Assembly (NCBI GenBank): GCA_963555705.1
Contig: OY743174.1
Coordinates: 24,617,608 to 24,681,607 of the forward strand
Direction of reading: 5' to 3'
DNA: 64,000 nt
Source of the DNA: Ligustrum vulgare
Taxonomy: Eukaryota; Streptophyta; Magnoliopsida; Lamiales; Oleaceae
In this document: positions 1 through 52,002 of the stretch, in pieces
Layout: each line of letters starts with the position of its first letter
How positions within the stretch are numbered: the first letter of the stretch is position 1
Made by a program: the position numbers and the translations under genes
Notes under the pieces: model-generated
What the model saw: the letters and a program-made list of their open reading frames with translations, nothing else
Databases searched by the model: none
Told to the model about the DNA's origin: nothing

Positions 1-925
1 GTTTTCCAGGTTGATGACCGGCGGCCTCACTTCGACGAAGGATAAGATCTCCCATTCTGAATTCCCTCTTCTTTACTCTGATATTAAACTTCTTGGCCAT
101 GGCCTGTTGATAAGCCGCTATTCTCAAGGAGGCATTTTCCCTGACTTCTTCCAGAAGATCCAGACTTTCTCTCTGTCTCTCAATCTGGGCGGGCGATTCT
201 GTGGTCATTGTACGGAAGCTGGGAATTGTTACTTCTACTGGAACAGCAGCTTCCATCCCAAAGGAAAGCATGAAAGGAGTTTCCCTTGTTGCAGTTTTGA
301 ATGTTGTTCGGTTGGTCCAAAGTATTTCTGGAAGGAGATCGGGCCAATCACCCTTGGCACTGTCAAGGCGAGTCCTCAAGTCTTGCAAGATGAGTCTGTT
401 CATAATTTCAGCTAATCCATTACTTTGCGGGTGCGAAACGGAAGTTAACATGTGTTCTATTCCAAGGTTCTTGCAGAACTGATTGAAGGCTTGGCACTTG
501 AACTGATGCCCAGTATCAGTGATTAATGTCTAAGGAAGACCAAAACGGCATATAATTGACTTCCATACAAATGCCTCCAACTTTTGTTCAGTGATTACGG
601 AAAGGGGTTTTGCTTACACCCATTTTGTGAAGTATTCCATAGATACTGCTAGGAACTTGACTTGACCAAGAGCTATGGGAAATGGCCGAAGCATTTCAAT
701 TCCCCATTGAGCGAAGGGATATGGGCACATAATTGAAGATAGTTCTTCTGCGGGTTGATGTAATCAGGCTGCAAACCTTTGGCACTTAATGCAAGTTTTC
801 ACATAGCTGAGTGTGTCCTTCTTCATGGTTGGACAATAGTATCCGTATCAAACTAACTTCATAATCAGTGCTCTTGCCCATGGTGTCCTCCACAAATTCC
901 TTCATGAACCTCGGCCATAGCAAGG
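1..925 (-). pseudogene. Tat-lineage Ty3/Gypsy integrase and pol C-terminal part (broken)
   Basis: Read on the minus strand this encodes the integrase half of a Ty3/Gypsy polyprotein, which would insert element cDNA into chromosomes. Recognisable pieces are an HEGICG-like start near 925, the SHPQSNGLAE signature of the catalytic core near 430-460, then the DLLPEILWTNRTTFKTAT stretch and a C-terminal part running off the left edge. Several in-frame stops (for example near 440, 530 and 720) and frame changes show it is dead. It is the downstream continuation of the RT-RNase H part at 27015-28897: the CACTA element 926-27014 split the gene after the LTPKEA motif and left a 3-bp AGG duplication. 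The 3' LTR lies left of the window. Confidence 0.85.
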
Positions 926-1215
926 TACTAGTACAGAAATGGAAAACGCGCCGATTGTAAAATGGAATACGCGTCGGTTGTAGAGGTGACGCTTATGATG
1001 CGACGCTTAAAGTCTAAAGTTCAAATTTAAGCATCGGTTGTAAGAATCGACGCTTAAAGTCGAACTTTAGGCGTCGGTTCTAAGTACAAACCGACGCCTA
1101 AAGTAAAAAAAAAATTAAAAAAAAAAACAACTTTGGGCGACGGTTCTAAATTTAGAATCAACGCCCAAAGTTAGTTTTAGGCGTCGGTTCTAGTTTTAGA
1201 ACCGACGCCTAAATT
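926..1215. repeat. CACTA left terminal inverted repeat and subterminal repeats
   Basis: The terminal motif is followed by repeats of GCGTCGGTT/GGCGTCGGTTCT in both orientations, forming small hairpins (for example around 1069-1100, 1132-1172 and 1176-1212) separated by A/T tracts. In CACTA elements such arrays bind the TNPA-type protein; here that role is inferred from position and pattern. Confidence 0.85.
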
Positions 1216-1254
1216 TTTATTTTTTTTTATTTTTTTTTATTTTTTTTTGCAGTA

Positions 1255-1560
1255 AAAATAATTCTCATGTCGTGACCTGCAATGACCCAAGCCACTGCAA
1301 GTCGTGGCCTGCAGTCACCTAGACGTGGACTGCAATGACTCAGGCCACTGCAAGTGTGGCCTGCAATGACCCAGGCAACTGCAAGTAGTTCCCTGCAGTC
1401 ACCTGGACGTGGCCTGCAGTGACCCAGGCAATCGCATGTCGTGGACTGCAATCACGTGGACGTGACCTGCATTGACCCAGGCCACTGCAAGTCCTAGCCT
1501 ACCAGGCCACTGCAAGTCCTATCCTACAATCACCTAGACGTGGCCTGTGGTGACCTGAAC
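1255..1560. repeat. Minisatellite inside CACTA left arm
   Basis: About ten degenerate copies of a unit around 25-35 bp, built from CTGCAATGACCCAGGCCACT and CACCTGGACGTGGCCTGCAG variants. It contains no convincing coding sequence; the 74-codon ORF across it is a by-product of the repeat. Part of it is repeated at 9058-9166. Confidence 0.8.
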
Positions 1561-1650
1561 ATTCTCCACATGCGTTTCACCAAATATATATATATAATCA
1601 ACATATACGTAATAAAATTAAATTAAAAACAATTATACTTACAAAATTGT

Positions 1651-1653
<3 letters not shown>

Positions 1654-1708
<55 letters not shown>

Positions 1709-1710
1709 TA
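1654..1710. repeat. (TG)n microsatellite with TA flank
   Basis: An uninterrupted run of about 20 TG dinucleotides (about 1663-1701) follows a TA run. From here to 2026 the CACTA sequence is AT-rich and I see no gene. Confidence 0.9.
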
Positions 1711-2026
1711 AATGCAAGTTTGATTACGCGTTAATTTACACAAACCTATGAACGAAGTATTTTGCCCATAAGTTTAGAAACTTGATGACTTCCTCCGTTG
1801 AATAGTATTCTTTAAATGCCTACAAACAATCAAAATGAATTATTAGTTATTTTTTCATAAAATATAAAGTCATAATTAAAAATTCTCATTTTCAATGACT
1901 TATACATTTTCTAACGAAGTAAGTTGAAAGTGTTCTGTGACTATCTCATACATATTTCTCATAACATAGTAGCCACACTCAGAACCTCCAGGTTGCTGAG
2001 GACACTGAAATTTTCACATTGAAAAC

Positions 2027-3420
2027 TGTTCACGCTCCGCAAGTGCACGGGTCGCGCAAGTAATAAAGTGGATTTTAAGTCCGAATATCGTTCCCACAGA
2101 GATTGTTTTAAATCGTATTTTAGACTACAAACCTTAACCGGAACGAGAAATTGTTTGGATTTGAAAGTTTTGAATTAAAATTAAACTAGAAGAAACGAGA
2201 AAATTTGATTTAGAGAAAATATGAGAAAAACATGCTAGAATTGAGAATCCACATTTATTCCATTAATTATGCATTAAATTAAACATCTAACAATAATTTA
2301 TGAGGTTTTGAAAATCCATATTCCTAATATTGTCAAGACTCCCTTTCGGACAAGAATCAACATCTATTTCTATACACAATCCGACTATATTTCTATGACG
2401 AATCTAAATGTATAGAAAAGCATTACAAATTTAGTGAATACTATAGCAGATAACACAAAGTATAGGGTTATATTTCTATCCCCTATCGGACTTTGTGGCA
2501 ATTTATACAAGTCTAATGAAATCTCAATCTTTCGAACTTAAGAAATCACAACCTAAAAGCATACAACTAGTGATCAAGTAATTGCATGATAAAAAAGTAT
2601 AAATCAATTGCTCAAACCCATGAATTATGAAATTAAATCATAATCAATACATAAAATCCGGAAATAAATGCTTCATCATAATTCTAACATTAAAAATCTA
2701 GCCTAGATACATAATTGAATATAAATCACAAAAGGAATGGATAGATGTCACCCTATTCATGCCCTTGATCTTCGTTCTTCAATTGTGTCTTGGCTTGGAA
2801 TGGATCCCTCCGCAGTCCGACAGCGTTTTGGCCTCTCTTTCATGAATTGGGAACCCCTAATCTCGTGCCTTTCGTCTGGTATTTATAGATTTCCTCGAAA
2901 ATTAGGTTAATTGAGGAGAAAACTGCTGAATTCCGCGTAAAAAGCCCAGCTGAGGCCCAGTCGAGACTACCGTGCGACCGCACGGTTCAAAAGTGCGCGA
3001 TCACATGACTCTGCAGGTAAACTTCAGTCGTTAAATTTTTTGACCGTGCGACCGCACGGTTATACGGTTTAAGGCCATTTCTGACTTTCAAATGTTACAG
3101 GTTGGTCCCTGTCTTTTAATTGCACAGCAAGCCCTCCAACTTCTGATTGTTGCAATTTAGCCCCTGAACTTCTGATTTCTTCCAAACTCGATTTTTTCTT
3201 CAAATTAACCATTTGATTGACTGCATCAATTCTTGATTTGCTCACTTTGACACTTTTTACATTCAATTGCTCAATTTTAGCTTCAATTCCTTTGTTTTCT
3301 CGACTTTGGGATTATTTCTGAAATGTAAACAAATAACACAAAATAAATAGCAAATATTCTAAAACAAACATATAAAATCCTACTTTTAGGATAGAATAAG
3401 TGTATAAAATACACTTATCA
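2027..3420 (-). repeat. Athila LTR, complete copy (3' LTR in minus orientation)
   Basis: 1394 bp, delimited by the AAAAC duplication on the left and by the polypurine tract on the right. Positions 2435-3420 match 18267-19254 with scattered substitutions. It contains two copies of a dyad ACCGTGCGACCGCACGGT (2969-2987 and 3043-3061). Confidence 0.9.
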
Positions 3421-3434
3421 ACACCCCCCAAACT
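3421..3434 (-). promoter_or_regulatory. Polypurine tract of the Athila element
   Basis: On the minus strand TAGTTTGGGGGGTG lies directly before the LTR start TGATAAG, the usual position of the plus-strand primer. Confidence 0.8.
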
Positions 3435-6543: not shown

Positions 6544-8793
6544 TCAAGGTGGTTTTAGATTGGATAGTGTAGCCTCATCATCCGCCCTTACCTTGTATTC
6601 ATACCTCTCCCAGTATTCCAATTCCATCTCGACATCTATCCTGGAGCAATTTTCTAGTTCTGGTTCATGGACATCAAATTGCATCATTGTTAAAGTCACT
6701 TCTTGATTTTCAGCCCGCAGCACTACATCTCCTTTTTCTACATCAATTAATGCTCGTGCAGTGGCTAGGAATGGCCGACCAAGTATCAAAGGAAAATTTT
6801 CATCTTCCTCCATATCTAAGATGATAAAGTCCGCTGGGAATATGAATTTGTGAACTTTTACCAATACATCCTCCACAACTCCATATGGATGACAGATTGA
6901 TCGATCAGCCAATTGCAATCTGATATTGCTTTCCTTTGGTTCACCCAATCCCAATTTCTTGTATAACGACAGGGATATCAGATTTATACTTGCACCTAGG
7001 TCACATAGGACCTTGTTGAATTTTAAATCACCTATAATGCAAGTTATTGAAAAGCTCCCTGGGTCTTTGAGCTTAGGTGGCAGCTTGTTTTGCAGGATTG
7101 CGCTGCATTCTTCATTCAAAGTGACCTCCTCAAGTTCTTCAAGTTTTTTCTTGCTAGACATCATCTTTTTTAGCAGCTTGGCGTAACTTGGGATTTGTGT
7201 GATGGCTTCCAAGAAGGGAATGTTTATGTGCAGTTTGCTAAGCATATTCACAAACTTGTTAAACTGCTTATCCTCTCTTGTTTTCTTCAGCCTTTGTGGA
7301 AATGGAATAGGAGACTCGTGAGGTTTAATTGTCAATTTGACCTCATTCTCCTCTTTCTTCTCAGTAGATTTTTTTTCAGGTGCCTCAACATGTTCTCCCT
7401 TTTCTTCATCTGGCTTTTGAACATGAATCTTAGGTAATTTCACTCCACTGCGTGTGGTAATTACATTTACTCCTTGTTTCTCTTTCCAACCTTTCAGTCT
7501 TTGGGGAAAAGGAGTGGGAGGGTCATAAACTCTGTCACATGGAGCAAAAGTGATCCTTCCTGGCACAAAATCTACCTCTCTTTCAACAGTTTTTATTGCC
7601 ATCACTTGCTCCCAAGGATTAACCTCAGTGTTACCAGGCAGTGTACCTGGGGCTCTGTTTGCTAAAGCCTGAGCTATCTGACCAACTTGGGTTTCCAAGT
7701 TTTTGATTGAAGCCTGATGATTTCACAATGTAGTTTCAGTCATCCTCATGAATTGGTCAGTTTTTGTCATGAATTGATCAGTTTTAGCCATAAACTGATT
7801 GGTCTGGCTCATGTACTGGTCAGTCTTCTCCATTAATTTCACAACCATCTCTTCAAGTTGAGATTTCTTCTCCACTACATGCTGTGGAGGGGCTTGCTGG
7901 CCAGTTCCATTTTGATTATCCCTCCATGAAAAGTTAGGGTGATTTCGCCAACCAAGATTATAAGTGTTGGAGTATGGATTATTTTAGCGATGTCCCCCTT
8001 GTACAAAGCTAACCTGCTCAGCTTGAGCTGCCAAAATTGGACAATCCGAGGTATTGTGATTGGCCCCACATTCCTCGCATCCAGTTACTACATTTTTCAC
8101 TGAATGATTGGTTTGTATGAAATTCATCAAAGAGTCCAATTTAGCAGACAATTCCGAAACATCATCCACTGCATAAACTCCTGCTGGTTTCTTTTGAATG
8201 GTCCTCTCAGACGCCCACATTGCATTGGTATTGGCTATTCTCTCAAACAGTTCAAGTGCTCCATCAAGAGTTTGGGTAGTTATTGATCCATTTGATGACG
8301 AATCAACAAGACTCTTGTATTGAGGGAGCAAGCCAATGTAAAAGTACCTTACCTGCTCATTTTTAGGTAATCCATGTTGAGGGCACTTCCTAAGCATGCT
8401 TTTAAACCTATTCCATGCTTCATCAAATGACTCAGACTCTTGTTGTTGAAGAATTGTTATCTCATGTCTGAGTTTAGAAACTTTGGCTGGGGGCATGAAT
8501 TTTGTGCAAAATTTTTGGGCCAAGTCATTCCAAGTTGTTATACTTACAGGAGGACGGGAGTCTAACCAATCTATTGCCCTATCTCGTAAGGTGTATGGAA
8601 GCAACGTAAGTCTTATGGCGTCATCTGACACACCCTGATATTTAAAATGTTCACACATGTCTACAAATTTAGACACATGTGCATGTGGATTTTCATCAGG
8701 TTTGCCATAGAATTGATGTCCATTCTGAAACATATTTATCACATTGGTCTTTAATTGGAAGTTTGCAAGACCAAAAGGTGGATATGGGCACAT
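6544..8793 (-). pseudogene. Athila gag-protease polyprotein (two stops, chimeric start)
   Basis: One minus-strand frame encodes Gag then aspartic protease. Gag shows the retrotrans_gag core (DWLDSRPPVSITTWNDLAQKF near 8600-8560), a cysteine cluster CEECGANHNTSDCP near 8060, and a run of TDQFM-like repeats around 7730-7850. The protease shows the DLGAS active-site motif near 6995 with ILGRPFL near 6785. In-frame stops lie at 7984-7986 and near 7722. The upstream boundary is not natural: at 8779 the frame passes into the duplicated Gypsy integrase segment, which supplies the apparent ATG at 8793. Gag would form particles and protease would mature them, but this copy is inactive. Confidence 0.85.
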
Positions 8794-9166: not shown

Positions 9167-11648
9167 AATAATAGGCTCTTTGAAAATAGCTCTTTGAAAA
9201 CAGCTCTTTGAAAACCATATACTTATAAAAACATTTTAATTATGCCAAGCATAATTTCTTTTGAAAGCATAACATAAGATAGGATTGAAATCCTCATAAA
9301 CATAAATAGACACAAGAACTTTACCGAACTTAGGTGGCAAGAATTCTTATGCAGTAAAACCATAATAACAGTAAGATCATAATAACATAGGATAAGATCG
9401 AAATCCTCATAAATATAAGAATTTTACCGAACTTAGGTGGCAAGAATTCTTATGTAGTAAAATCATAATAACAGTAAGATCATAATAACAGTAAGATCAT
9501 AATAACAGTAAGTATACCAAAACATAATTCATGAAATTCATAGGGATCATTTCCATCATAACATAAGATAGGATCGAAATCCTCATAAACATACGCGACA
9601 GGAATTTTACCGAACTTAGGTGGTAAATCCTCATAAACATATGGAAAGACAGGAATTTTACCGAACTTAGGTGGTAAATCCTCATAAACTTATGGAGACA
9701 CAAGAATTTTACCGAACTTAGGTGGTAAGAATTCTTATGTGCATAGCAATGATCCAAAACATATAAAACATTATCGTAAAAACATAGGGTATACTTACTT
9801 TTCATAAAAACATAAGGTATATTTACCTTTCATAAAACATACTTAATTTTCTTGAAAATTGACTTTCACAAGTCACATGACATTCATATGAAATCATAAT
9901 TTAAATCAATTAATAAGTGCGAGTCTACCTCAAATCCGACGAGTGCAAAGTTGAGCGGGAATGACTTCAATTTCTTTAAATTCTCCGTACGCTTCGTCTT
10001 AGCCAATAAGTCACTTTAGTCTATCGAATATATAGTTCAAAATGATAAATTATAATTTGAGGACTAAAATTGATGTTTTGAAAGTTGAGGGACTAAAATG
10101 AATATTTTGAAAGTTAAGGGACTAAAATGAATACTTTTAAAACTTGGGCTTAAAATAAATCAGCAGGTACTGAAATAAAAGAGTTTAAAGTTAAAGGGCT
10201 GAAGTAAATCATTTTAAAGCAGTAGGGACTGAATTGATAAGTTTAAAACTAAAAGGGCTGGAAAAAAAACTCATTTTTGGAAACTGAGGGACTAAACAGC
10301 AATTTTCGAAATATATTAAAATATATCCTCAGATCTTTACTTTCTCTCTCTCTCACAACGTCACTCTAAATCAGTCCGAGAGAAAAACGCAGAGTTTGGG
10401 TCCGGCGGAGGTACTGCCGGCGATTTGCCGGTGAAACGCCGTGGTCAAGCGGCGGCTGCCAGGGTAGCAGTGGGGTGGTTGAAGGAAGTTATTTGGGTGG
10501 TTTATTGTGTGAAACCGAAACCAAATCAAAGCTGGAAATCGAAATCGGATTTGTGCTTTTCGGCCAAAATCTGTCCAATGGTGGTCTGAGGTGAGGTAAG
10601 TACTTTGTTTGGCTTATTCTTGGGTTTGGGTTGATTTTGGGTTCGAGGTGGCTGATTCGAAAATGGGTGATGAGGGTGCTGAGTTGGTGGCGGTTGAAAT
10701 GGTGAAGAAGGTAGCGATGGCATTGGGTGTTGACTTGGGGCTGCAAGCGGCGGCTGCAGTTTTTTTTGGCAGCTAGTTGATGGTCGGCGAACTGATGGTG
10801 AAAGGGGCGGATTGGTATTGAAAATAGCAGCGTTGGTGGATGATGGTTGCTGCTTGATTCGGTGGTGGTGAATGTATTGAATGGCTGCTTGATGAAATTT
10901 AGCAGTGGTTGGTTTTGGTGATTTAAAATTGAGTAGTGGTGATCAGAGGGAGTGATATCGTCTGCTGGTTGTAAATGATCAGCTGTGATGCAACTTGGTG
11001 GTGGTTTGATTGAGCGGCGATGGTGACGATGGTAGAGGGCAGTGTATGGTGATAGGCGGTAGATTGGTGGATTGGAGTGGTTGTCGAATGGTTCCGAAAT
11101 GAATTTGGTGGTGATGTTGAACATTGAAATAGGTGGAGTTGGTGATCAAAGTGGAGGCTATAACTTTGCTGGAAAGAATGGTTGGAATATGAGAATGGAG
11201 CTGGAAAGGGGAAACTGCACATGGAAGGTTTCAACTTGGCAGTAGGGACTGGAAATGGCTTTCGGCGATGCTGAGGATGATGAGAATGATGGTGTTTGCT
11301 TTGATGGTGGATATAGGTTGGAAATGAGGTGGAAAGGAGAATAAAGAGGAATGCAAAATGTGGGAAGTAATCAACTAAAAATTAGACTAAATTCGATCAA
11401 GAAACGTATTTAAAACAGATATATTTTGGACTGAAAATAATTTTGAAAATAATACTTTGAATAAATAATTAAAATAACATAATTTTAGAAATTCGGATTT
11501 TAATTTAAAATCGAACAAATTCGATATTTCTTGACTTGGCTAGACGAACACGTCGCGGCGTTAACTTCAAAACAATGGGTGAAATAGTAGCAACACAAGT
11601 TTCTAAATATTAAAATAATTATTAATTGCGTAAAAATTCTGGGTCGCT
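9167..11648 (-). repeat. Inverted 5' LTR copy (left palindrome arm)
   Basis: This is the reverse complement of 15265-17730 with few substitutions and small indels (for example one base in the T-run at 10760 and a C/T difference near 9937). It lacks the last about 535 bp of the LTR on its outer side, ending at AATAATAGGC. Long ORFs in both arms mirror each other and are low-complexity Pro/His/Ser translations, so I treat them as LTR sequence rather than genes. Confidence 0.9.
9300..9760. repeat. LTR-internal tandem repeats (mirror at 17180-17610)
   Basis: At least five copies of a unit containing TTTTACCGAACTTAGGTGG with CATAAACATA-type spacers. In the right LTR the same units appear as CCACCTAAGTTCGGTAAAAT. 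Confidence 0.85.
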
Positions 11649-11662
11649 AGTATCAGAGCTAG
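11649..11662 (+). promoter_or_regulatory. Primer-binding site (initiator-Met tRNA type)
   Basis: GTATCAGAGCTAGTCTGCG follows the inverted LTR directly, GGGTCGCTA|GTATCAGAGC. The normal order would be LTR end CGCTACA, then TGGTATCAGAGC, so about four bases at the boundary are missing. It fixes the element's direction as plus, opposite to the adjacent LTR arm. Confidence 0.8.
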
Positions 11663-12607
11663 TCTGCGTTTCTGTAGACTGGTAAAATTTTCAAAAAGAA
11701 TTTTCAAGAAATATTTTTCATTATAAGATTTTTATTGATGAAGATTGCCACTGCCATCATTTCGCTCCACCAACTCCGAGGTAAAGAAGTTTATAATGTT
11801 TAAAGTTATTTCAGTATTTCGAATACTCATTTTATTGATTTATGAGAAAGAATGAAGAGTATTTCGGATACTTATGATTTATGAGAAATAAGAATGTATT
11901 TCTTCGAAAATAATGATGTTGTTATGCTTTGTCATAACTTATATGCTTTAATGTATGATTATGAGAAATTTTTTTAAGAAAGAAAACGAGTGTTGAGCAT
12001 AATGGGAACAATATGATTTTATTGAAAATTAAGTAATGGATATTATGTTGAGTAAGTGAATTATTTCCTCTATTTTGAAGAGAAATTTATTATGAAGTTT
12101 GGCCTTGTGAATATTTTGGGAATATGATTTATGGCATATATTTATAAGTATGAGTTATCTTTTGAGCCATTAAGGTATCGAAGGAAGTGATATTGTGATA
12201 TTGAAAAAAATATAATTTGAAATTGTTATGTTGAGGAATTATGAATTGAATTATGGGATATTTTTGATGATATTGAAGTGTTGGAATCGTTTTCAATATT
12301 TTAGATCGTTGTGATCAAATGTGGAGTTATTTGTTATTGTGAGTTATGAAGTATGCTTATGTTTTGGGATAAGTCCAAATTACAAGGGAGACTCTGTTCA
12401 GAATTTTATCAATTGGAATTAAGAGCATGATATGATAAGCATCTACTAAAGAATTAAGGTTAGACATGCAAGTTCATTTACATCACAAACGAGATTTGGT
12501 TGATGATAGCAGAGATTTTATTATTTTCTCATAAGGAGAACACACAAGAGTCACACTGGAAAGGAAATACATGAAACACATGAAAGCATAAGAGAAAAAC
12601 ATGGAAA
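11663..12607. other. Tekay 5' untranslated-like region, no gene
   Basis: AT-rich sequence after the primer-binding site. It begins like a Tekay leader (CTGCCACTGCCATCATTTCG near 11748) but leads into no gag frame; stops occur in all frames. Confidence 0.6.
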
Positions 12608-12840
12608 GATCCTCAGAATGAGAGATGTGTTTCCGGAGTAGCCGTATCCTACCACCTCTGATCTTTTGAGGAAATAAAGAAACCTTCAAAGAGGTGTGTT
12701 TCGAGAGTAAGAATACTCCGTAATCTACCACCTGGAACCTTTGAGGTACACACAAGATTTAAACATTAAGGAAATCCTAGTAAATGGAGGGGTGTCTCGA
12801 GAGTGAGAATACTCCGTACTCTACCCCCACCTATTCTAAG
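12608..12840. repeat. Three degenerate tandem repeats downstream of the LOG gene
   Basis: Copies near 12616-12672, 12690-12752 and 12784-12835 share GTGTTTCGAGAGTAAGAATA, CTCCGTAATCTACCACCT and a TTTGAGG-type end. Relative to the minus-strand LOG gene they lie just past the stop and could be in its 3' UTR. Confidence 0.75.
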
Positions 12841-12902
12841 ATTCACAGAGTTAAGTTTACATTAACCGGACTCCATTTTCGCTTGATTCCCCTTCCTTGC
12901 GA

Positions 12903-13496
12903 TCAATCTATCTTAACCCCTGCTGGATCTTGTATTGAGATATATGACTGCAGCTTATCCAGTAGTTCATCAATAGTAGGAGCAGAAATAAGAAGCCTTC
13001 TGGAAAATGGAGAGATGAATCCCTGTTCCACAGCATAATCAAGAAAAGTTAACAAACCATCAAAGAAATTGTTAACATTCAGAAGTCCAATAGGCTTAGT
13101 ATGGAGATCTAGTTGAGCCCACGAGGTAATGTTAAAGATTTCTTCTAAGGTACCAAAACCTCCGGGCAGGGCTATAAAGGCATCAGAACCATATAGCATA
13201 CAAGTTATGCGTTCATGGATGGAAAATGTTTGAACTTCATGCCCTCGTGTTTTGCCTGCAACATCTACCAAAGGGACAGGTATGACACCGATTACTTTTG
13301 ATTTCTCTGCAAGAGCAGATTGGGAAACACAACCCATTAGACCACTGCTACCACCCCCATATACAAGAGTGATACCTTTTTCCCCCAGTTTCTTTCCAAG
13401 ATCTACAGCCGCTTCTAGATAACCGAAGCCTTTCCCCACTCTTGATCCACAAAATACACAAATAGTTTTGATTTGTCGAAGTTTTGGTGCTTCCAT
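12903..13496 (-). CDS. LOG: LOG-type cytokinin riboside 5'-monophosphate phosphoribohydrolase, captured copy
   Basis: An intact, intronless 197-codon ORF of the LOG (lysine-decarboxylase-like) family. These enzymes hydrolyse cytokinin riboside monophosphates to active free-base cytokinin plus ribose 5-phosphate in the cytosol. Visible features are a Rossmann start with CVFCGS (residues 13-18), YGGGSSGLMG (46-55), IHERI (93-97) where canonical plant LOGs have an H-x-R-K version, and the family signature PGGFGTLEE (111-119). The C-terminus stops soon after the last helix, so the protein is slightly shorter than the usual 210-220 residues. The ATG at 13496 is preceded by a TATA-like TTTAAATAG about 80 bp upstream. 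It lies antisense inside a Tekay-like retroelement, 328 bp downstream of another open ORF. Plant LOG genes normally have several introns, so an intronless copy suggests capture from mRNA. Activity is not proven. Confidence 0.88.
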   Translation of the reverse strand: MEAPKLRQIKTICVFCGSRVGKGFGYLEAAVDLGKKLGEKGITLVYGGGSSGLMGCVSQSALAEKSKVIGVIPVPLVDVAGKTRGHEVQTFSIHERITCMLYGSDAFIALPGGFGTLEEIFNITSWAQLDLHTKPIGLLNVNNFFDGLLTFLDYAVEQGFISPFSRRLLISAPTIDELLDKLQSYISIQDPAGVKID

Positions 13497-13565
13497 CTTT
13501 GATAGTATAGAAGAGAAAACTTACGAAGAAGATGTGATTTTGGGATGCCTGAACTATGAAATATG

Positions 13566-13578
13566 TTTGGCTATTTAA
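13566..13578 (-). promoter_or_regulatory. Putative TATA box of the LOG copy
   Basis: On the minus strand GCTTTAAATAGCC lies about 75-80 bp before the ATG. A nearly identical TTTTAAATAG precedes the neighbouring ORF, suggesting each ORF has its own core promoter. Confidence 0.45.
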
Positions 13579-13824
13579 AGCCGGAAAAATTTACTGTTTT
13601 TGATTGATTCTGAAAAAGTAAAGATTTATTTTTGACAAAATCGGCCAACTTTTGACTGTTTTACCAAAGATATCACCTTTCGGTGATTTATTTCCAGCTT
13701 TATCAAACCTCGAGAAAGGAAAATATATTTATTTCCAGCTTTTTTCAAAACTCGAGAAAGGAAAATATATTTTATTTCCAAAACGCGTGAAAGAAAAGCA
13801 ACAAAATATTTTAAAAGATTTACC

Positions 13825-14376
13825 TTATATCATTGCTGAACTGCCAGAAGCCTCATTTTGTAAAACAGACTGGCAAACAGGATCTTTCGATATTATATTT
13901 TGGAGACTATAACGATTTTTGTCCTCGTTAAACTGAGCGTATAGGGAGAGAAGTTCACGTTGTACATAACCACTTGGGTGCGTCTCAAGAGTCAGTCGAA
14001 TATCATCCAAAGACTCCTTACTCAGTCCACCCTTTATGAATTCGATTTTATCATCCCGATTAGTAGAAGAATATCCTACTGATTTGCAACGAGTATCACA
14101 ATTCCAACGAGCACATTTGTAGCAACCACCCAGCCTTTTTGCTCTTCGTTTCTTTGCGAACGTGCTTTTGCCTAAACCAGGCATGTGCTTTGGAAATGTT
14201 GATGGTATTTCACCAGATAGTCGAACCTTTGCTTCGATCAACCAGCGAACATCTTCTGGAATACCATGAGTCATCAGCAACCTCAATCTTTCGAGCCTTA
14301 TTCTATAGATCTTTCTCAGATCATTCATAGGAAGACTGGAATAATACTTGCGGATGTTTGTAAGGATGATATCCAT
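13825..14376 (-). CDS. Small basic zinc-finger protein resembling plant RNA-virus nucleic-acid-binding proteins
   Basis: An open 183-codon frame starting at the first ATG (14376). Its middle carries GKSTFAKKRRAKRL (residues 69-82), a basic patch directly followed by a compact cysteine cluster C85-x2-C88-x4-C93-x3-C97, then a charged DDKIEFIKGG segment (108-117). A basic patch plus small zinc finger plus this trailing segment is the layout of the viral nucleic-acid-binding protein family (Viral_NABP/Carla_C4 type) near the 3' end of carla-, viti- and related Betaflexiviridae genomes. Those proteins bind RNA and act in silencing suppression or symptom induction. The N-terminal 65 residues and the C-terminal 65 residues match nothing I recognise. 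It lies upstream of LOG on the same strand. Alternative: an unrelated host zinc-finger protein. Viral origin is an inference from motif layout. Confidence 0.6.
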   Translation of the reverse strand: MDIILTNIRKYYSSLPMNDLRKIYRIRLERLRLLMTHGIPEDVRWLIEAKVRLSGEIPSTFPKHMPGLGKSTFAKKRRAKRLGGCYKCARWNCDTRCKSVGYSSTNRDDKIEFIKGGLSKESLDDIRLTLETHPSGYVQRELLSLYAQFNEDKNRYSLQNIISKDPVCQSVLQNEASGSSAMI

Positions 14377-14407
14377 TGTTTGATGATTCAACCTCTTCCC
14401 AGCATGA

Positions 14408-14418
14408 ACTATTTAAAA
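14408..14418 (-). promoter_or_regulatory. Putative TATA box of the NABP-like ORF
   Basis: On the minus strand GCTTTTAAATAGTTC sits about 35-45 bp before the ATG at 14376, leaving room for only a very short leader. Confidence 0.4.
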
Positions 14419-14419
14419 G

Positions 14420-15105
14420 CGTAAAGGATCTGAGTGAATCCGCGTGATGTTGTGACCAGCAAGAAAGCGCAGGATTATTTTAATGAAAAGAGGAGACAGA
14501 ATTTATGCGCCGTTTACTTTATTGATAAAGGAAGAGTTGATGATAAGATTTGAGATATGAAATATTTTTCTTGGATTTTGGGTACTGATATTTTGATATA
14601 ATAATCAAGGTATAGAAATAATACGGGAATACGTGAAAGAGAAATAAGGACCGTATTGAATCAGAATTCATACGTATATACAAGTGAAAGAAATACTTTG
14701 CAGGAAATGTGGTGATATTTAAGTAAAGAATCTTAGTTTGGAAGATATTTGTTTAATGAATTTTTGGGTTACAAATATTGGAATGATAAGTTGATGATAT
14801 TATGTTGATATGTTTGGATATATTACGTAGAGAGAATATTCAGGTAATTCTTTGATTATTTTGGAAATATTCGATGATAAGAAGAAAGGAAAATTTTTAT
14901 GATATGATATATCAGTAAAGATTTGTTGAAATTTTAGAGATATATACGAATATTTGAGGTCACATGATACGATGATAAGTGACAAGTTACATGAATACTA
15001 CAAGATATGATGAAATATCACATACGATTGGGAATTTTCATTTTGATTCAAAAGAATTTATGAGTAGACATATGTCTATAGAAAAAGTCCATGTTCTTGA
15101 GAAAA
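14420..15105. other. Unassigned segment between captured ORFs and pol remnant
   Basis: AT-rich with stops in all frames. No recognised domain; it may be decayed pol or captured flanking sequence. Confidence 0.5.
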
Positions 15106-15107
15106 CA

Positions 15108-15165
15108 AATTGATGCATTTAGTCAAAGTCCAGTGGGTTAAATATGGTAGCGATGATGCTACATA
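15108..15165 (+). pseudogene. Remnant of Tekay/chromovirus pol C-terminus
   Basis: The frame reads KLMHLVKVQWVKYGSDDAT then a stop, matching the LVKVxW...EATWE stretch at the end of chromovirus pol. It lies 80-150 bp before the polypurine tract, as in complete elements, and shows the interior once carried gag-pol. Confidence 0.65.
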
Positions 15166-15227
15166 AGAAGAAAAAAAAAAGAGATTCTGATTAAGTATTC
15201 AGAAATCATAAGATCAAGTAAGTTTAA

Positions 15228-15261
15228 TTTCGAGGACGAAATTATTTTAAGGAGGTAAGAT
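15228..15261 (+). promoter_or_regulatory. Polypurine tract of the Tekay-like element
   Basis: CGAGGACGAAATTATTTTAA then GGAGGTAAGAT ends directly at the LTR start TGTAGCGACCC. This arrangement is typical of the Del/Tekay 3' end. Confidence 0.85.
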
Positions 15262-18200
15262 TGTAGCGACCCAGAATTTTTACTCAATTAATAATTATTT
15301 TAATATTTAGAAACTTGTGTTGCTACTATTTCACCCATTGTTTTGAAGTTAACGCCGCGACGTGTTCGTCTAGCCAAGTCAAGAAATATCGAATTTGTTC
15401 GATTTTAAATTAAAATCCGAATTTCTAAAATTATGTTATTTTAATTATTTATTCAAAGTATTATTTTCAAAATTATTTTCAGTCCAAAATATATCTGTTT
15501 TAAATACGTTTCTTGATCGAAGTTAGTCTAATTTTTAGTTGATTACTTCCCACATTTTGCATTCCTCTTTATTCTCCTTTCCACCTCATTTCCAACCTAT
15601 ATCCACCATCAAAGCAAACACCATCATTCTCATCATCCTCAGCATCGCCGAAAGCCATTTCCAGTCCCTACTGCCAAGTTGAAACCTTCCATGTGCAGTT
15701 TCCCCTTTCCAGCTCCATTCTCATATTCCAACCATTCTTTCCAGCAAAGTTATAGCCTCCACTTTGATCACCAACTCCACCTATTTCAATGTTCAACATC
15801 ACCACCAAATTCATTTCGGAACCATTCGACAACCACTCCAATCCACCAATCTACCGCCTATCACCATACACTGCCCTCTACCATCGTCACCATCGCCGCT
15901 CAATCAAACCACCACCAAGTTGCATCACAGCTGATCATTTACAACCAGCAGACGATATCACTCCCTCTGATCACCACTACTCAATTTTAAATCACCAAAA
16001 CCAACCACTGCTAAATTTCATCAAGCAGCCATTCAATACATTCACCACCACCGAATCAAGCAGCAACCATCATCCACCGACGCTGCTATTTTCAATACCA
16101 ATCCGCCCCTTTCACCATCAGTTCGCCGACCATCAACTAGCTGCCAAAAAAAAACTGCAGCCGCCGCTTGCAGCCCCAAGTCAACACCCAATGCCATCGC
16201 TACCTTCTTCACCATTTCAACCGCCACCAACTCAGCACCCTCATCACCCATTTTCGAATCAGCCACCTCGAACCCAAAATCAACCCAAACCCAAGAATAA
16301 GCCAAACAAAGTACTTACCTCACCTCAGACCACCATTGGACAGATTTTGGCCGAAAAGCACAAATCCGATTTCGATTTCCAGCTTTGATTTGGTTTCGGT
16401 TTCACACAATAAACCACCCAAATAACTTCCTTCAACCACCCCACTGCTACCCTGGCAGCCGCCGCTTGACCACGGCGTTTCACCGGCAAATCGCCGGCAG
16501 TACCTCCGCCGGACCCAAACTCTGCGTTTTTCTCTCGGACTGATTTAGAGTGACGTTGTGAGAGAGAGAGAAAGTAAAGATCTGAGGATATATTTTAATA
16601 TATTTCGAAAATTGCTGTTTAGTCCCTCAGTTTCCAAAAATGAGTTTTTTTTCCAGCCCTTTTAGTTTTAAACTTATCAATTCAGTCCCTACTGCTTTAA
16701 AATGATTTACTTCAGCCCTTTAACTTTAAACTCTTTTATTTCAGTACCTGCTGATTTATTTTAAGCCCAAGTTTTAAAAGTATTCATTTTAGTCCCTTAA
16801 CTTTCAAAATATTCATTTTAGTCCCTCAACTTTCAAAACATCAATTTTAGTCCTCAAATTATAATTTATCATTTTGAACTATATATTCGATAGACTAAAG
16901 TGACTTATTGGCTAAGACGAAGCGTACGGAGAATTTAAAGAAATTGAAGTCATTCCCGCTCAACTTTGCACTCGTCGAATTTGAGGTAGACTCGCACTTA
17001 TTAATTGATTTAAATTATGATTTCATATGAATGTCATGTGACTTGTGAAAGTCAATTTTCAAGAAAATTAAGTATGTTTTATGAAAGGTAAATATACCTT
17101 ATGTTTTTATGAAAAGTAAGTATACCCTATGTTTTTACGATAATGTTTTATATGTTTTGGATCATTGCTATGCACATAAGAATTCTTACCACCTAAGTTC
17201 GGTAAAATTCTTGTGTCTCCATAAGTTTATGAGGATTTACCACCTAAGTTCGGTAAAATTCCTGTCTTTCCATATGTTTATGAGGATTTACCACCTAAGT
17301 TCGGTAAAATTCCTGTCGCGTATGTTTATGAGGATTTCGATCCTATCTTATGTTATGATGGAAATGATCCCTATGAATTTCATGAATTATGTTTTGGTAT
17401 ACTTACTGTTATTATGATCTTACTGTTATTATGATTTTACTACATAAGAATTCTTGCCACCTAAGTTCGGTAAAATTCTTATATTTATGAGGATTTCGAT
17501 CTTATCCTATGTTATTATGATCTTACTGTTATTATGGTTTTACTGCATAAGAATTCTTGCCACCTAAGTTCGATAAAGTTCTTGTGTCTATTTATGTTTA
17601 TGAGGATTTCAATCCTATCTTATGTTATGCTTTCAAAAGAAATTATGCTTGGCATAATTAAAATGTTTTTATAAGTATATGGTTTTCAAAGAGCTGTTTT
17701 CAAAGAGCTATTTTCAAAGAGCCTATTATTTTCACAATATGTCTCGTGCTGTAATGCACAATATGAGTTTTATCAAGAGCAGTTTTATAAAGAAGCTCTA
17801 TCAATGCCCGTTTTATAAAGAGCCGGGATTTGTGTGTTTAATCATCTTATAAATTAAATTAATTTGCGATGAGTCTACTGAGTATTTCCCCCATGAAATA
17901 CTCACCCTACTTTTTAACAATTTTGCAGATTTCGGAGACGGTGGCGAGCGATGAATGATGGTGGCAATAATCGTTAAACAGTTGAAAGTTTGACGTTAAT
18001 GGTTTCCGTATTTTCCAAACAATCGAATAATTTAGAGAAGTTCATTTATTTGAGAAATTATGACATTGGCAATTTCTTTACAATATTAATGGTTCGATTT
18101 ACTATTTCAAATGGTTTCATAAATGTTTTCAATTTTATCGGCCATTACAGTTTATTTAATGTTGCAAAAAATGAATTTCAATTATTTCTTCCGCAAAAAT

Positions 18201-18266
18201 ATTATTCGAAAAATTTAGACAGAAAATGACGTAGTGAATCGGGTATACGGAACTCGGGGCGCTACA
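15262..18266 (+). repeat. Tekay-like 3' LTR, 3.0 kb, complete
   Basis: Begins TGTAGCGACCC and ends GGGGCGCTACA, so the LTR ends are themselves an imperfect 11-bp inverted repeat. It carries low-complexity ORFs (15679-16425), a GC-rich block near 16440-16520, several AGTCCCT-type repeats (16620-16860) and the CCACCTAAGTTCGG repeats. It is related in architecture to the solo LTRs at 45788-62752 and 58801-62236. The right flank begins TGAAT, the expected 5-bp duplication; the partner copy is deleted. Confidence 0.88.
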
Positions 18267-19254
18267 TGAATACTATAGCAGATAACACAAAGCATATGGG
18301 TATATTTATATCCCCTATCGGACTTTGTGGCAATTGATACAAGTCTAATGAAATCTCAATCTTTCGAACTTAAGAAATCACAACCTAAAATCATACAACT
18401 AGTGATCAAGTAATTGCATGATAAAAAAGTATAAATCAATTGCTCAAACCCATGAATTATGAAATTAAATGATAATCAATACATAAAATCCGGAAATAAA
18501 TGCTTCATCACAATTCTAACATTAAAAATCTAGCCTAGATATATAATTGAATATAAATCACAAAAGGAATGGATAGATGTCACCCTATTCATGCCCTTGA
18601 TCTTCGTTCTTCAATTGTGTCTTGGCTTGGAATGAATCCCTCCGCAGTCCGACAGTGTTTTGGCCTCTCTTTCATGAATTGGGAACCCCTAATCTCGTGC
18701 CTTTTGTCTGGTATTTATAGATTTCCCCGAAAATTAGGTTAATTGAGGAGAAAACTGCTGAATTCTGCGTAAAAATCCCAGCTGAGGCCCAGTCGGGACT
18801 ACCGTGCTACCACACGGTTCAAAAGTGCGCGATCGCATGACTCTGCAGGTAAACTTCAGTTGCTGAATTTTTTGACCGTGCGACCGCACGGTTATACGGT
18901 TTAAGGCCATTTTTGACTTTCAAATGTTACAAGTTGGTCCCTGTCTTTTAATTGCACAGCAAGTCCTCCAACTTCTGATTGTTGCAATTTAGCCCCTGAA
19001 CTTCTGATTTCTTCAAAACTCGATTTTTTTCTTCAAATTAACCATTTGATTGACTGCATCAATTCTTGATTTGCTCACTTTGACACTTTTTACATTCAAT
19101 TGCTCAATTTTAGCTTCAATTCCTTTGTTTTCTCGACTTTGGGATTATTTCTGAAATGTAAACAAATAACGCAAAATAAATAGAAAATATTCTAAAACAA
19201 ACATATAAAATCCTACTTTTAGGATAGAAATAAGTGTATAAAATACACTTGTCA
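18267..19254 (-). repeat. Athila LTR, part (interrupted by the Tekay element)
   Basis: Matches 2435-3420. Its right end is followed by AAAAC, the same 5 bp that precedes the left LTR at 2022-2026. The two ACCGTGCG dyads are present at 18801 (mutated) and 18875. Confidence 0.88.
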
Positions 19255-19748
19255 AAAACTAACAATATTAGTAATCAAACTAAATAGAATATAGAAATAA
19301 TTCAAAGGGTTGTAATAAAATTTAAATCTATGTTTTCATATCTTTACGTTTTTCCACGTTGTATTGGATTTCGTCCTCAAGCCTCAAATTGTCTAATACG
19401 TTTTGAAAGCCCTAAAGTTTCAATAAATTATATCAACAAGCTACAAATTAATAATAAGATTCAAATTCAGGGTCTCCCCTATAATTTGAACTTATCCAAA
19501 ATGTAGGGAGACCCTGCTATTCAAAACTATCAACTTTTCAACAATCACAACATAAATGCATCAATTTCACTACAACTCCACAATCAATTTCACTACAACT
19601 CGACAATCAGTTTCTCCAGAAATCCACAATTATTTCATGAAATTTTTCCTAACTTACGTGTTCAATATCGGATTGATATCTAATTAGGTAAAAAAATAGA
19701 GAATACCAATGGTCTTACTTCTAAAAATACGATGCTAAAATGAGTTTC

Positions 19749-22309: not shown

Positions 22310-25300
22310 TCAGGAACGACGGTCAATCCATAATCCTTCTTCATGATTCCAACGCATGTAATTTGATTCAATGTTATCTTCCCCTAAAGTTGCACTCCCT
22401 TGTATACCAACAGAAAATGGAGGGGTTTCATCAAAGTGATCATAATCTTCTTCATCTACTACATCACAATCCCAACAATGCGTCTCTTTCCTTGAAGGAC
22501 GACTGACCACTTAGTATCAGCAAGATCAAGAACATAAAATACATGTTTGGCTTGTGATACAAGTATAAATGGCTCGTCTAGATAACCCAGCCGTCCAAAA
22601 TCCACCATAGTGAATCCTAATTCATCCACCCGAACACCCCGTCAGTTATCAACCCATTTACATTGGAAGAGAGGAAACTTGAACTCCCTGTAATCAAGTT
22701 CCCAAATATCTTCAATGATACCATAATAGGACATCGAGGCATCTACTGGCATGGTATCTTTAGCATTTGAAAAATCTCGTGATAGTGCTACTTGTGTCAC
22801 TCCACTATTTTGCACCGCACTCTTATCATCTTGATGTTTAGTGTAAAGCGTATACCCATTAATCTCATATGCTTCATATGACCTCACAATCGTGCTAGGA
22901 CCGTACGCTAACCACTTTACCGTTTCAACAATGGTATTCGGCGTTTGTGACAATTCTTTCATGTCTTTATCTTTGAACCATTTTGCAAATGAACGATTAT
23001 GTTGATAAGTTACCCACCTTTCAAATTTTGAAGGATTCTACTGCCTTATGATGGACATATGCTCGTCCAAATATGGATGAACTTCAGAAAGGTGTTATAA
23101 TACAAGGAGGTGTGCTTTATCTCGCAATTCAACATTAGGGACGATTGACTATCCAATAGTACCTTTACCTTCAAGTCTTCCATCATGCCGAGATTTAGGA
23201 ACACCAATAGTCTCAACGTCATCCAGGTAATCAGTACAAAATTAAATAGCCTCCTCAGCAGCATAACCTTCAATGATACTACCTTCAGGTCGAAATCGAT
23301 TTCTCACATATCCTTTCAATATACCTATGTATCTCTCAAATGGATACATATACCTCAAGAATACTGGACCACAGATCTTAATTTCTCTCACCATGTGAAC
23401 AAGTAAGTGCACCATAATGTCAAAAAATGATGGCGGAAAATACATTTCAAATTGACATAGAGTGATAACAATATCGGCCTGCAAATCATCCAACGCCACT
23501 GGGTCAACAACTTTGCTGCAAATTGCATTGAAGAAAAAACAAAGTTTTATAATGACTTTTCTAACATGTTTTCGGAGAATGCCTCGAATTGCAACTGGTA
23601 ACAATTGTTGCATTAAGACATGACAATCATGAGACTTCATACTGACCAATTTTAAGTCCTTCATCGACACAAGACTTTTAATGTTTGATGAGTACCCAGA
23701 TGGAACCTTAATAGCATGCAGGCACTCACAAAAACTTGTTTTCTCTTTTCTCGACAAACTATAGCAAGCCAGGGGTAAATAAGTATATTTTTCCGACTCT
23801 TGCGGTGCTAATTGATCCCGTATCCCCATTTCTACCATGTATTTCCTGACTTTAATACCATCTTTCGTCTTTCCTGGAATGTTCAACAATGTCCCAGTGA
23901 TGCTATCACAAACATTTTCCTCAACGTACATTACATCAAGACAATGCCTTATAGATAAGTATTGCCAATAAGGTAGATCCCAGAATATGGACCTCTTCTT
24001 CCAAAGACTCTTCTGAGGAGGCTTAAAAGTTTTTCCAAACAAAACATCAATATTTTTAACTCATGCTTATACCTCACCTCCTGTTAACGGTAAGCGATCT
24101 GCTCGAGCCTCGATTTTTCCATTGAATGGCTTTTTCTTCTTGCGATAAGTGTGGTCAGTAGGGAGAAATCTTCTATGACTCATAAAGACATTTTTCTTAC
24201 AGTTTTTCAACCAAATATCAATCGTGTCTTCTTCACAAACGGGACATGCTTTAGGTCATTTGTTAGTATAACCCGACAAGTTCTCATAAGCTGAAAAATC
24301 ATATACGGTGTAAAATATCATAGCACGTAAGGTGAAATTCATCTGAGTATGTGCATCAAATACCGACACGCCTTCATCCCAAAAAAGTCTTAAATCTTCA
24401 ATTAATGGGGCTAGGTAAACATCTATGTCATTCACCGGTTGTTTAGGCCCTGATATTAGCAAAAACAACATGATATACTTCCACTTCATACATAACCAAG
24501 GAGGTAGATTGTAAATCGTCAAGAGAACCGGCCAAGTGCTATGTTGACTACTCATGTTACCATGCGGGTTCATCCCATCTGTATATAGTCCAAGCCTAAG
24601 ATTCCTATCCTCGCCCCCAAATTCAAGAAACAGCCTATTAATGTTCGTCCATTGAGGAGAATAGACCATGTGTCTTAGTTTTCCATCTTCTTTTCTCTCA
24701 TCGTCATGCCACTGCATGTTCTTCGCATCCTTTGCATTGGCAAACAAACGTTTAAATCTTGGTGTTACGGGTAGGTACCATAACACCTTTGCCAGAGGGC
24801 TTTTCTTATCCTCATCGTTCACGTTCTTTCGCTTGTACCGTGATGCCCCACACTTTGAAAAAATACGCAAGTCCTTATACTCATTTCAATACAGTATACA
24901 ATCATTGGGACATGCATGTATCCTCTCGATCTCCATACCCATCTGACACGACAATTTCTTGGCCTCGTAGATTGAACTAGGAAGCTCGTTATCCTCCGAA
25001 AGCATCTCTCATAAAAGTTCCAGTAATGCCGTGAAACTCTTATCACTCCACCTATTGTTTGCTTTCAAGTTATACAATTTCAACACAGCAGACAATTTTG
25101 TAAATTTGCTATAACCAGAAAACAAAGGTTTCTCAAAATCATTGAACAAGTTATCGAATAAATGAGGCTTTTCATTGAATTCCCTTTGTATATCACGACA
25201 TCATTTCGTGTATCATATCATTCTCGTCATTTTCCACATCATTCTCACCAAAATTGCTGAAATTATTCTCCTGCAATCCGCCATCATTGTCACCAGTGCA

Positions 25301-46075: not shown

Positions 46076-46285
46076 ATTCTCAAATCAATACAAAAAATTA
46101 TTCTCAGCCATATACAAAGTGTAACGAGAAAATAAATGAAAATACCCTTAAAAACTTATCAATTTTTGAAAATACCCTAACAATTTTATATCTTTTAAAA
46201 ATAGCCTTAAACACTATAAACTACCACACATACCCTTATATATCATATTTCAACTAAACTCATTAAGATTTAGAAAAGTTACAAC

Positions 46286-50125: not shown

Positions 50126-50143
50126 CTAAGCTCTGATACCAAT
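50126..50143 (-). promoter_or_regulatory. Copia primer-binding site
   Basis: On the minus strand TTGGTATCAGAGCTTAGG immediately follows the LTR, complementary to initiator-Met tRNA. Confidence 0.9.
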
Positions 50144-51912: not shown

Positions 51913-52002
51913 ACAACCTAGTCCTTGAAATTTTATATACTTTTATTAATTTTGTTTATGATTTTATTTGATTTTTGTTCGCTCATAGTAGCACCCCTCA
52001 CT

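What the first reader, a model, noticed from the sequence alone, without database searches (positions are those of the whole stretch)
12903..14376. LTR retroelement carrying an intact LOG gene beside a viral-NABP-like gene
Two open, intronless ORFs on one strand, each with a TTTAAATAG box, replace gag-pol in a Tekay-type element that still has PBS, PPT and a pol remnant. LOG enzymes release active cytokinin; the neighbour looks like an RNA-virus nucleic-acid-binding protein. Such cargo could make a mobile growth-altering or symptom-like module. I know of no described element with this pair.
Basis: partly seen in the sequence, partly recalled or inferred. Interest (0 to 1): 0.88.

Follow-up and report, generated by a model that had tools for sequence, protein, structure and literature searches.

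The report
Gene-carrying jumping DNA without engine genes
A plant genome holds thousands of copies of a young jumping element that has lost its own copying machinery but keeps two genes, one resembling a plant-virus nucleic-acid-binding protein and one a cytokinin-activating enzyme, and the pattern of mutations suggests that both genes help the element to spread.

Summary
Both ORFs are real: LOG (12903-13496, minus; Pfam 1e-33) and a viral-NABP-like zinc-finger protein (13825-14376, minus; 3e-7). They belong to a large, young LTR family of this 1.38-Gb plant genome: 36-mers of NABP and LOG hit 3,589 and 4,509 places, reversed controls 0. Canonical copies have direct LTRs, Met-type PBS, exact 5-bp target duplications (6 of 6 examined) and a 3.6-kb interior whose only ORFs of 120 codons or more are these two genes, antisense (4 of 4). 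No gag-pol. In 49 sampled copies, variants seen at two or more places are depleted in amino-acid changes (LOG 4:21, NABP 16:25; neutral about 2.7:1), so both genes appear selected during copying. The pair recurs in Orobanche and Citrus. Related LOGs end in a basic stretch plus LxLxL, an EAR-like tail (91 of 120). The window copy is aberrant: left LTR inverted and truncated, LOG about 20 codons short. LOG in Gypsy elements was already published; I found the pair as sole, selected cargo in none of my searches. What the genes do for the element is inferred.

The parts
12903..13496 (-). LOG-like ORF, 197 aa, YGGGSSGLMG at 46-55, Arg at 96, PGGFGTLEE at 111-119; lacks the C-terminal basic + LxLxL-like tail that most relatives and most sampled genome copies carry
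13825..14376 (-). NABP-like ORF, 183 aa, basic KKRRAKR at 75 and C-x2-C-x4-C-x3-C at 85-97
13571..13579 (-). TTTAAATAG box, starts 83 nt before the LOG ATG (putative TATA box)
14409..14417 (-). TTTAAATAG box, starts 41 nt before the NABP ATG (putative TATA box)
11650..15261 (+). interior of the element (3.6 kb), cargo genes antisense to the LTRs
   Evidence: matched at 92-99% over 3.1-3.6 kb in L034-L037, L039, L040 and L043
11650..11659 (+). remnant of the tRNA-Met-type PBS (GTATCAGAGC); six other copies read CTACA-AGT-TGGTATCAGAGC
15250..15261 (+). polypurine tract before the right LTR
   Evidence: sequence
15262..18266 (+). complete right LTR, TGTAGCGACC ... GGGGCGCTACA
9167..11649 (-). left LTR copy, inverted relative to the right one and missing about 535 nt of its 3' end; left junction shows short microhomology

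Best explanation
This is a copy of a very abundant, recently active, non-autonomous LTR retrotransposon family of chromovirus (Tekay-like) build. It has given up gag-pol and codes only for two antisense genes: a zinc-finger nucleic-acid-binding protein related to the cysteine-rich NABPs of carla/allexi-like RNA viruses, and a type-I LONELY GUY enzyme whose C terminus (in most sampled copies and relatives) carries a basic stretch and an LxLxL-like EAR motif. Shown: family, anatomy, young age, absence of gag-pol in the copies examined, and depletion of amino-acid changes among variants that spread. Inferred: gag-pol comes in trans from an autonomous Tekay-type element; the cargo genes are expressed from their own TATA boxes; LOG releases active cytokinin (and its tail may recruit TOPLESS-type co-repressors) while NABP binds nucleic acid and dampens silencing or reprograms transcription, so that the element is copied more often in dividing, germline-bound cells. 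I give the functional step itself about 0.35. The window copy is an aberrant derivative with an inverted, truncated left LTR, best explained by end-joining of element DNA with loss of flank.
For: Copies: 3,589 NABP and 4,509 LOG 36-mer sites (up to 3 mismatches), reversed controls 0; the best 150 scored hits for each protein have no internal stop (NABP 97-100%, LOG 99-100% identity). Anatomy: direct LTR-interior-LTR and tandem arrays; 6 of 6 elements with both ends held have exact 5-bp target duplications; six LTR or tandem-LTR pairs, compared over the pieces held, differ by 0-4 substitutions in 974-2,939 nt. Only NABP and LOG reach 120 codons inside 4 of 4 interiors. Selection: 40 LOG and 45 NABP rows from 49 copies; LOG single-place N:S 33:17, at two or more places 4:21 (Fisher 6e-5); NABP 30:22 and 16:25; against neutral, shared variants p 8e-9 (LOG) and 3e-6 (NABP), still 8e-4 and 6e-4 without C>T/G>A. 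pN/pS 0.13 and 0.22 pooled, 0.19 and 0.22 in the set chosen on non-coding DNA. Window NABP versus the NABP of L002: dN 0.29, dS 1.33. LOG fold: Arabidopsis At2g37210 2a33_B, TM 0.83/0.94. Tail: 91 of 120 listed LOG relatives end in strict LxLxL, 98 in a loose form, 95 of those 98 with a basic cluster. Trees: window NABP with P0001 (0.94), then Orobanche (0.90); window LOG with P0121 (0.998), then a group of three Orobanche and four further proteins, one named as Diospyros (1.0).
Against: No expression, enzyme or silencing data. The autonomous partner was not found: my query for it did not complete. NABP's contrast between single-place and shared variants is not significant (p 0.096; 0.77 without deamination changes), and LOG's falls to p 0.15 without C>T/G>A. 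Only 49 copies of thousands were sampled, 30 by NABP identity (which favours NABP conservation; the window copy is one of them) and 19 by non-coding identity. A LOG lineage in Orobanche lacks the GGGxxGL loop in 21 of 21 proteins that keep PGG, while 17 keep the tail, which argues against enzyme activity as the shared function. Conversely the window copy and L070 lack the tail. The NABP structure model is poor (pLDDT 56).
Confidence: 0.72

Rival explanations
1. Passenger cargo: the two genes were picked up (perhaps from an Athila-type element) and hitch-hike in a non-autonomous Tekay-like element without function; ORFs are open only because the copies are young.
For: Six LTR pairs differ by 0-4 substitutions; of 19 non-coding-selected copies 5 do not have the 217-aa LOG (one of these, 214 aa, keeps frame and tail) and 3 have a shortened NABP; the 197-aa LOG of the window also occurs in L070.
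Against: LOG copies differ by 3.5-4% at synonymous sites but by 0.4-0.7% at non-synonymous sites; intergenic divergence is 4.2% in the NABP-chosen set and 1.9% in the set chosen for that stretch; shared variants reject neutrality.
Confidence: 0.15
2. The module's main role is transcriptional and not hormonal: LOG serves as a scaffold that carries an EAR-like tail and NABP acts as a nuclear zinc-finger factor, silencing or reprogramming host genes (for instance defence or TE-silencing genes).
For: Tail in 91 of 120 relatives; an Orobanche lineage without the GGGxxGL loop keeps it in 17 of 21; viral CRPs act as transcription factor and silencing suppressor (PMC12172455 and PMC8839810, passages read); LxLxL EAR motifs bind TOPLESS (PMC10942257, passages read).
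Against: In the window copy the catalytic motifs are intact and LOG non-synonymous sites are constrained across copies; the tail is missing from the window copy and a few others; in this genome it has only the loose form; binding to TOPLESS was not tested.
Confidence: 0.3
3. The window copy arose by a one-step autointegration or inversion inside the element and not by end-joining of broken element DNA.
For: The two arms are inverted and nearly identical.
Against: The left junction has short microhomology, lacks 535 nt of LTR, and 819 nt present in a related stretch of the window are missing there; whether those 819 nt were lost here or gained there is open.
Confidence: 0.3
4. The two genes are ordinary host genes or a chance endogenous RNA-virus insert that happens to lie between LTR fragments.
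For: Pfam names; LOG is also a host family.
Against: Thousands of sites, and the copies examined sit in the same LTR frame with target duplications.
Confidence: 0.02

Closest known systems
Athila-lineage Ty3/gypsy elements with extra 3' ORFs (Steinbauerova et al. 2011, abstract recalled; LOG/YgdH in Citrus and P. trichocarpa Gypsy consensuses in PMC9289625, section 12 read)
   Same: LOG domain carried by a Ty3/gypsy element; NABP lies 192 nt behind an integrase ORF (Athila-type by recall of its motifs) on the same strand in L002; NABP-LOG order on one strand in Orobanche and Citrus gene models
   Different: Here no gag-pol, genes antisense to the LTRs, Met-type PBS and Tekay-like ends, both genes as sole coding content
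Non-autonomous LTR elements (LARD, TRIM; recalled)
   Same: LTRs, PBS and PPT kept, gag-pol lost, high copy number, presumably mobilised in trans
   Different: LARDs and TRIMs are defined by lack of coding capacity; this family keeps two genes that appear to be under selection
Cysteine-rich NABPs of carla-, allexi- and mandariviruses (PF05515, PF01623)
   Same: Basic stretch followed by a Cys zinc-finger-like motif; both Pfam cut-offs passed
   Different: Spacing C-x2-C-x4-C-x3-C here against C-x2-C-x12-C-x4-C quoted for a carlavirus (PMC8839810, passage read); carried by a DNA element; function untested
Plant type-I LOG enzymes (At2g37210, At5g11950)
   Same: Fold and active-site motifs
   Different: Intronless, on a branch apart from these two in the tree (0.94), basic + LxLxL tail in most relatives; that canonical plant LOGs lack such a tail is recalled
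Orchid Ty3/gypsy elements with an m6A demethylase domain (PMC9289625)
   Same: Host-like domain kept by a Gypsy family
   Different: Those consensuses were found through their reverse transcriptase; other cargo

Membership tests
LTR retrotransposon | direct LTRs | tested here: met
   met in L037-L041 and L043; not met in the window copy, whose LTRs are inverted
LTR retrotransposon | short target-site duplication | tested here: met
   5 bp exact in 6 of 6 elements with both ends held; not seen in the window copy
LTR retrotransposon | gag-pol in the element (autonomy) | tested here: not met
   only NABP and LOG of 120 codons or more in 4 of 4 interiors; no Pfam match of note in 8 pieces of the window interior
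Tekay/Del chromovirus | tRNA-Met-type PBS | tested here: met
   TGGTATCAGAGC in 6 of 6 copies; that Tekay uses this PBS is recalled
Tekay/Del chromovirus | position in the RT or integrase tree, chromodomain | not testable with these tools
   the copies examined have no pol; autonomous partner not found
Athila lineage | Athila pol upstream of the extra ORFs | tested here: not met
   absent in the 4 copies examined, integrase present in L002
LARD | no coding capacity | tested here: not met
   two ORFs with depleted amino-acid change
type-I LOG | PGGxGTxxE motif, catalytic Arg and Glu, fold | tested here: met
   role of Arg and Glu from PMC8234997 (passages)
type-I LOG | release of cytokinin base from the ribotide | not testable with these tools
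   needs an enzyme assay
viral NABP (PF05515/PF01623) | profile score above Pfam cut-off | tested here: met
   31.3 against 23 bits, 27.4 against 20.9 bits
viral NABP (PF05515/PF01623) | encoded by an RNA virus | tested here: not met
   LTR element context
EAR-motif repressor | LxLxL motif | tested here: not met
   absent in the window LOG; in the copies that have the tail the ending is VNVNLTL (loose form only); strict LxLxL in 91 of 120 relatives
EAR-motif repressor | binding to TOPLESS | not tested
   needs a binding assay

The most novel reading that the evidence does not exclude
A retro-satellite: a replication-defective LTR element that lives on the gag-pol of another lineage and carries only host-manipulation genes, a viral-type nucleic-acid-binding protein and a cytokinin-activating enzyme with a nuclear, EAR-like repressor tail, which are selected because they raise the element's own transmission by pushing cells to divide and by blunting silencing.
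Probability: 0.33. Interest if true: 0.93.

Novelty: new variant of a known kind. Interest (0 to 1): 0.8.

Why it matters
Plant LTR elements are usually seen as carrying replication genes plus, now and then, inert captured genes. A family with thousands of copies that has dropped replication and kept two non-replicative genes under selection would show that elements can compete by acting on the host cell (hormone activation, nucleic-acid binding) much as viruses and their satellites do. It makes testable whether transposable elements use cytokinin and co-repressor recruitment to enter the germline, and why viral-type zinc-finger proteins recur in plant retroelements.

Tried and rejected
Viral contigs: NABP single sequence and alignment gave no relative; the LOG alignment gave one distant 30% match, L001, not followed. 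NABP against phage records: none. NABP against solved structures: none. NABP fold: model too poor to search, so no fold comparison with viral proteins was made. Similarity of the three repeats at 12630-12832 to the stretch between integrase and NABP in L002: best score 21 against a shuffle mean of 19.9 and maximum of 29, rejected. TTTAAATAG boxes as strong evidence of promoters: the exact 9-mer is expected in 0.16% of random 100-mers of this composition, but two such 100-mers share some 9-mer in 6% of trials, so they stay putative. Matching contig lengths between the NABP and LOG hit lists (8,723 and 4,511 nt) are only a hint and were not used. Papers: ten searches; most papers were seen as listings only, and I saw none that describes a retroelement with NABP, alone or paired with LOG; the library lacks most subscription papers, and Steinbauerova 2011 was not read (abstract recalled; seen only through PMC9289625). 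The plant was not identified; asterid affinity (nearest named relatives Orobanche and Diospyros) is from the trees, and an Oleaceae guess (about 23 large contigs) is recall, untested beyond a taxonomy look-up.

Full report
What is in the window. The two ORFs of the finding are real. LOG (12903-13496, minus, 197 aa) hits PF03641 at 1.1e-33 and TIGR00730 at 3.1e-48; NABP (13825-14376, minus, 183 aa) hits PF05515 at 2.6e-7 and PF01623 at 3.3e-6, all above the curated cut-offs. NABP has a basic KKRRAKR followed by C-x2-C-x4-C-x3-C. The LOG model (pLDDT 87) matches Arabidopsis At2g37210 with TM 0.83/0.94, and the motif PGGFGTLEE, the Arg at 96 and the GGGxxGL loop are present. The nearest flanks are a PBS-like GTATCAGAGC at 11650 and a purine tract before a 3,005-nt LTR (15262-18266). 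The left LTR (9167-11649) is inverted and lacks about 535 nt.

What it is in the genome. A search of the window's own assembly (1.385 Gb, 51 contigs) gave 150 scored NABP hits of 97-100% identity with no internal stop (8,796 first-look candidates), and 150 LOG hits of 99-100% (9,294 candidates); both lists are capped at 150. A 36-mer of NABP occurs 3,589 times and one of LOG 4,509 times with up to 3 mismatches; the reversed patterns occur 0 times. Of the twelve 9.9-kb stretches fetched, L037-L041 and L043 show direct LTR-interior-LTR, with LTRs of about 3-3.6 kb; L033/L034 and L035/L036 lie in tandem arrays and L042 holds part of a second interior in tandem; L044 is rearranged, with a broken interior and inverted pieces. 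In the six elements whose outer ends I held, the 5-bp target duplication is exact (6 of 6). Six LTR or tandem-LTR pairs, compared over the pieces held, differ by 0, 0, 0, 1, 1 and 4 substitutions. The interior holds no other stop-to-stop frame of 120 codons or more in 4 of 4 copies examined (L039, L040, L041, L043). It is therefore a non-autonomous, recently active LTR family whose examined copies code only for NABP and LOG, antisense to the LTRs.

The window copy is odd. Its inverted junction occurs once in the genome at up to 2 mismatches. Its two arms differ by 5 substitutions and two indels. Relative to a related stretch at 717-3421 of the window, which also differs by another gap, 819 nt are missing at the left junction, where a short microhomology is seen; which of the two stretches is ancestral is not known. 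Its LOG stops about 20 codons before the end found in P0121 and in most sampled copies; L070 has the same short form. Copies with the full frame exist.

Are the genes kept by selection? In the 30 copies chosen by NABP similarity (the window copy is one) NABP is open in 30, once with a longer frame, and LOG is 217 aa in 26. In the 19 copies chosen by non-coding DNA (19 of the 40 places listed) NABP is 183 aa in 16 and LOG 217 aa in 14. Using full-length ORFs only (rows dropped: 4 and 5 for LOG, 0 and 3 for NABP for other length; one further NABP row, L032, because its frame reads on to 217 aa), pN/pS is 0.13 for LOG and 0.22 for NABP pooled, and 0.19 and 0.22 in the 19 alone. With tandem neighbours counted as one place, LOG variants seen at one place are 33 N to 17 S, near neutral (p 0.34), those at two or more places 4 to 21 (p 8e-9 against neutral; Fisher 6e-5 between classes). 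NABP gives 30:22 (p 0.011) and 16:25 (p 3e-6), with no significant contrast between classes (p 0.096). Without C>T and G>A the shared classes still reject neutrality (8e-4, 6e-4), but the contrasts between classes do not hold (p 0.15, 0.77), and NABP variants seen at one place are depleted as well (p 0.003). Variants seen once in a sample of 49 out of thousands need not be young, which may blur the contrast. Dropping rows of other length removes nonsense and frameshift changes only. My reading is that both genes are needed, or at least useful, while lineages of the element spread. Between the window NABP and the NABP of L002, dN is 0.29 and dS 1.33.

Relatives elsewhere. NABP has 345 relatives at E<=1 (120 listed) in Orobanche, Populus, Xanthoceras, Acer and unnamed sources. 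LOG has 7,286 at E<=1e-3 (120 listed). Of 120 proteins listed for an Orobanche NABP-LOG gene model, 20 carry both an NABP domain and PF03641, all Orobanche; two Citrus models carry PF01623 with the SLOG domain PF18306. L002, a plant contig filed under a bacterial MAG, shows an integrase ORF (PF00665, PF17921), then 192 nt, then NABP on the same strand, and no LOG-like ORF among those listed in the remaining 0.98 kb. The label Athila for that integrase is from recall of its C-terminal motifs. In the NABP tree the window pairs with one unnamed sequence and then with Orobanche; in the LOG tree it pairs with one unnamed sequence and then joins three Orobanche and four further proteins. That is what one expects if the pair travels together.

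The tail. Of the 120 nearest LOG relatives, 91 end in strict LxLxL within three residues of the end and 98 in a looser form; 95 of the 98 have three or more K/R within five residues in the last 30. The other 22 do not have that ending; many look like shortened or altered gene models. In this genome the tail reads KRKWSPVNVNLTL, the loose form. In one Orobanche lineage 21 of 21 proteins with a PGG motif lack the GGGxxGL loop, while 15 keep the strict and 2 the loose tail; two proteins of another Orobanche lineage (P0265, P0268) keep the loop and end differently. LxLxL EAR motifs bind the co-repressor TOPLESS (PMC10942257, passages read). That TE-borne LOGs carry such a tail I did not see stated in the listings or in the passages read.

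How it may work. Shown: anatomy, young age, depletion of amino-acid change. From known families: LOG turns cytokinin ribotides into active bases (PMC8234997, passages); viral cysteine-rich NABPs suppress silencing, and one acts as a transcription factor that induces hyperplasia (PMC12172455 and PMC8839810, passages). Inferred: gag-pol in trans, expression from the TATA-like boxes, and a joint effect on cell division or silencing that raises copying in cells that reach the next generation. Two opposed hints remain open: here the catalytic site is kept, in Orobanche the tail outlives the loop.

Novelty. LOG in Gypsy elements is in print (PMC9289625, section 12 read; citing Steinbauerova 2011, not read). 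Additional ORFs, antisense ones included, are a known theme (PMC7264820 and PMC6317226, passages read; antisense from recall). New, as far as my ten searches reach, are the NABP partner, the pair as the sole and selected content of a gag-pol-less LTR family with thousands of sites, and the EAR-like tail. I file it as a new variant of a known kind.

Noticed in passing
46282-51913: Direct repeats of 1.78 kb, 97% identical, flank a short interior with a copia-type gag ORF (49022-50125, PF14223 and zinc knuckle) and no other ORF of 150 aa: apparently a second LTR element that keeps only gag.
   Followed up: partly
6544-8793: Gag and protease ORFs of an Athila-like element (PF03732; PF08284), minus strand; the element studied here lies between them and a repeat at 18267-19255.
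   Followed up: partly
23242-24870: Remains of a tnp2-type (CACTA) transposase and a DUF4218 piece.
   Followed up: partly
27581-28897: Ty3/gypsy reverse transcriptase and RNase H ORF, minus strand (PF00078, PF17919).
   Followed up: partly
G000 C9:10258304-10285519 and C22:15290865-15317298: Runs of five NABP copies spaced about 6.45-6.7 kb apart, as expected of tandem elements sharing LTRs.
   Followed up: partly
L002: Plant retroelement DNA filed as a contig of a Candidatus Nomurabacteria MAG, so evidently contamination.
   Followed up: partly
Orobanche proteins such as P0241 and P0259: LOG lineage without the GGGxxGL loop but with a conserved basic + LxLxL tail, often in one gene model with NABP.
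   Followed up: partly
whole genome G000: LOG 36-mer sites (4,509) outnumber NABP sites (3,589); the surplus may be decayed copies or LOG without NABP, or just a difference between the two patterns.
   Followed up: no
12630-12832: Three imperfect repeats of about 40 nt below LOG, role unknown; no match to L002 above shuffles.
   Followed up: partly
L038, L041 and L042, interior near position 370: About 275 nt extra in the interior of some copies, perhaps a mark of subfamilies.
   Followed up: no
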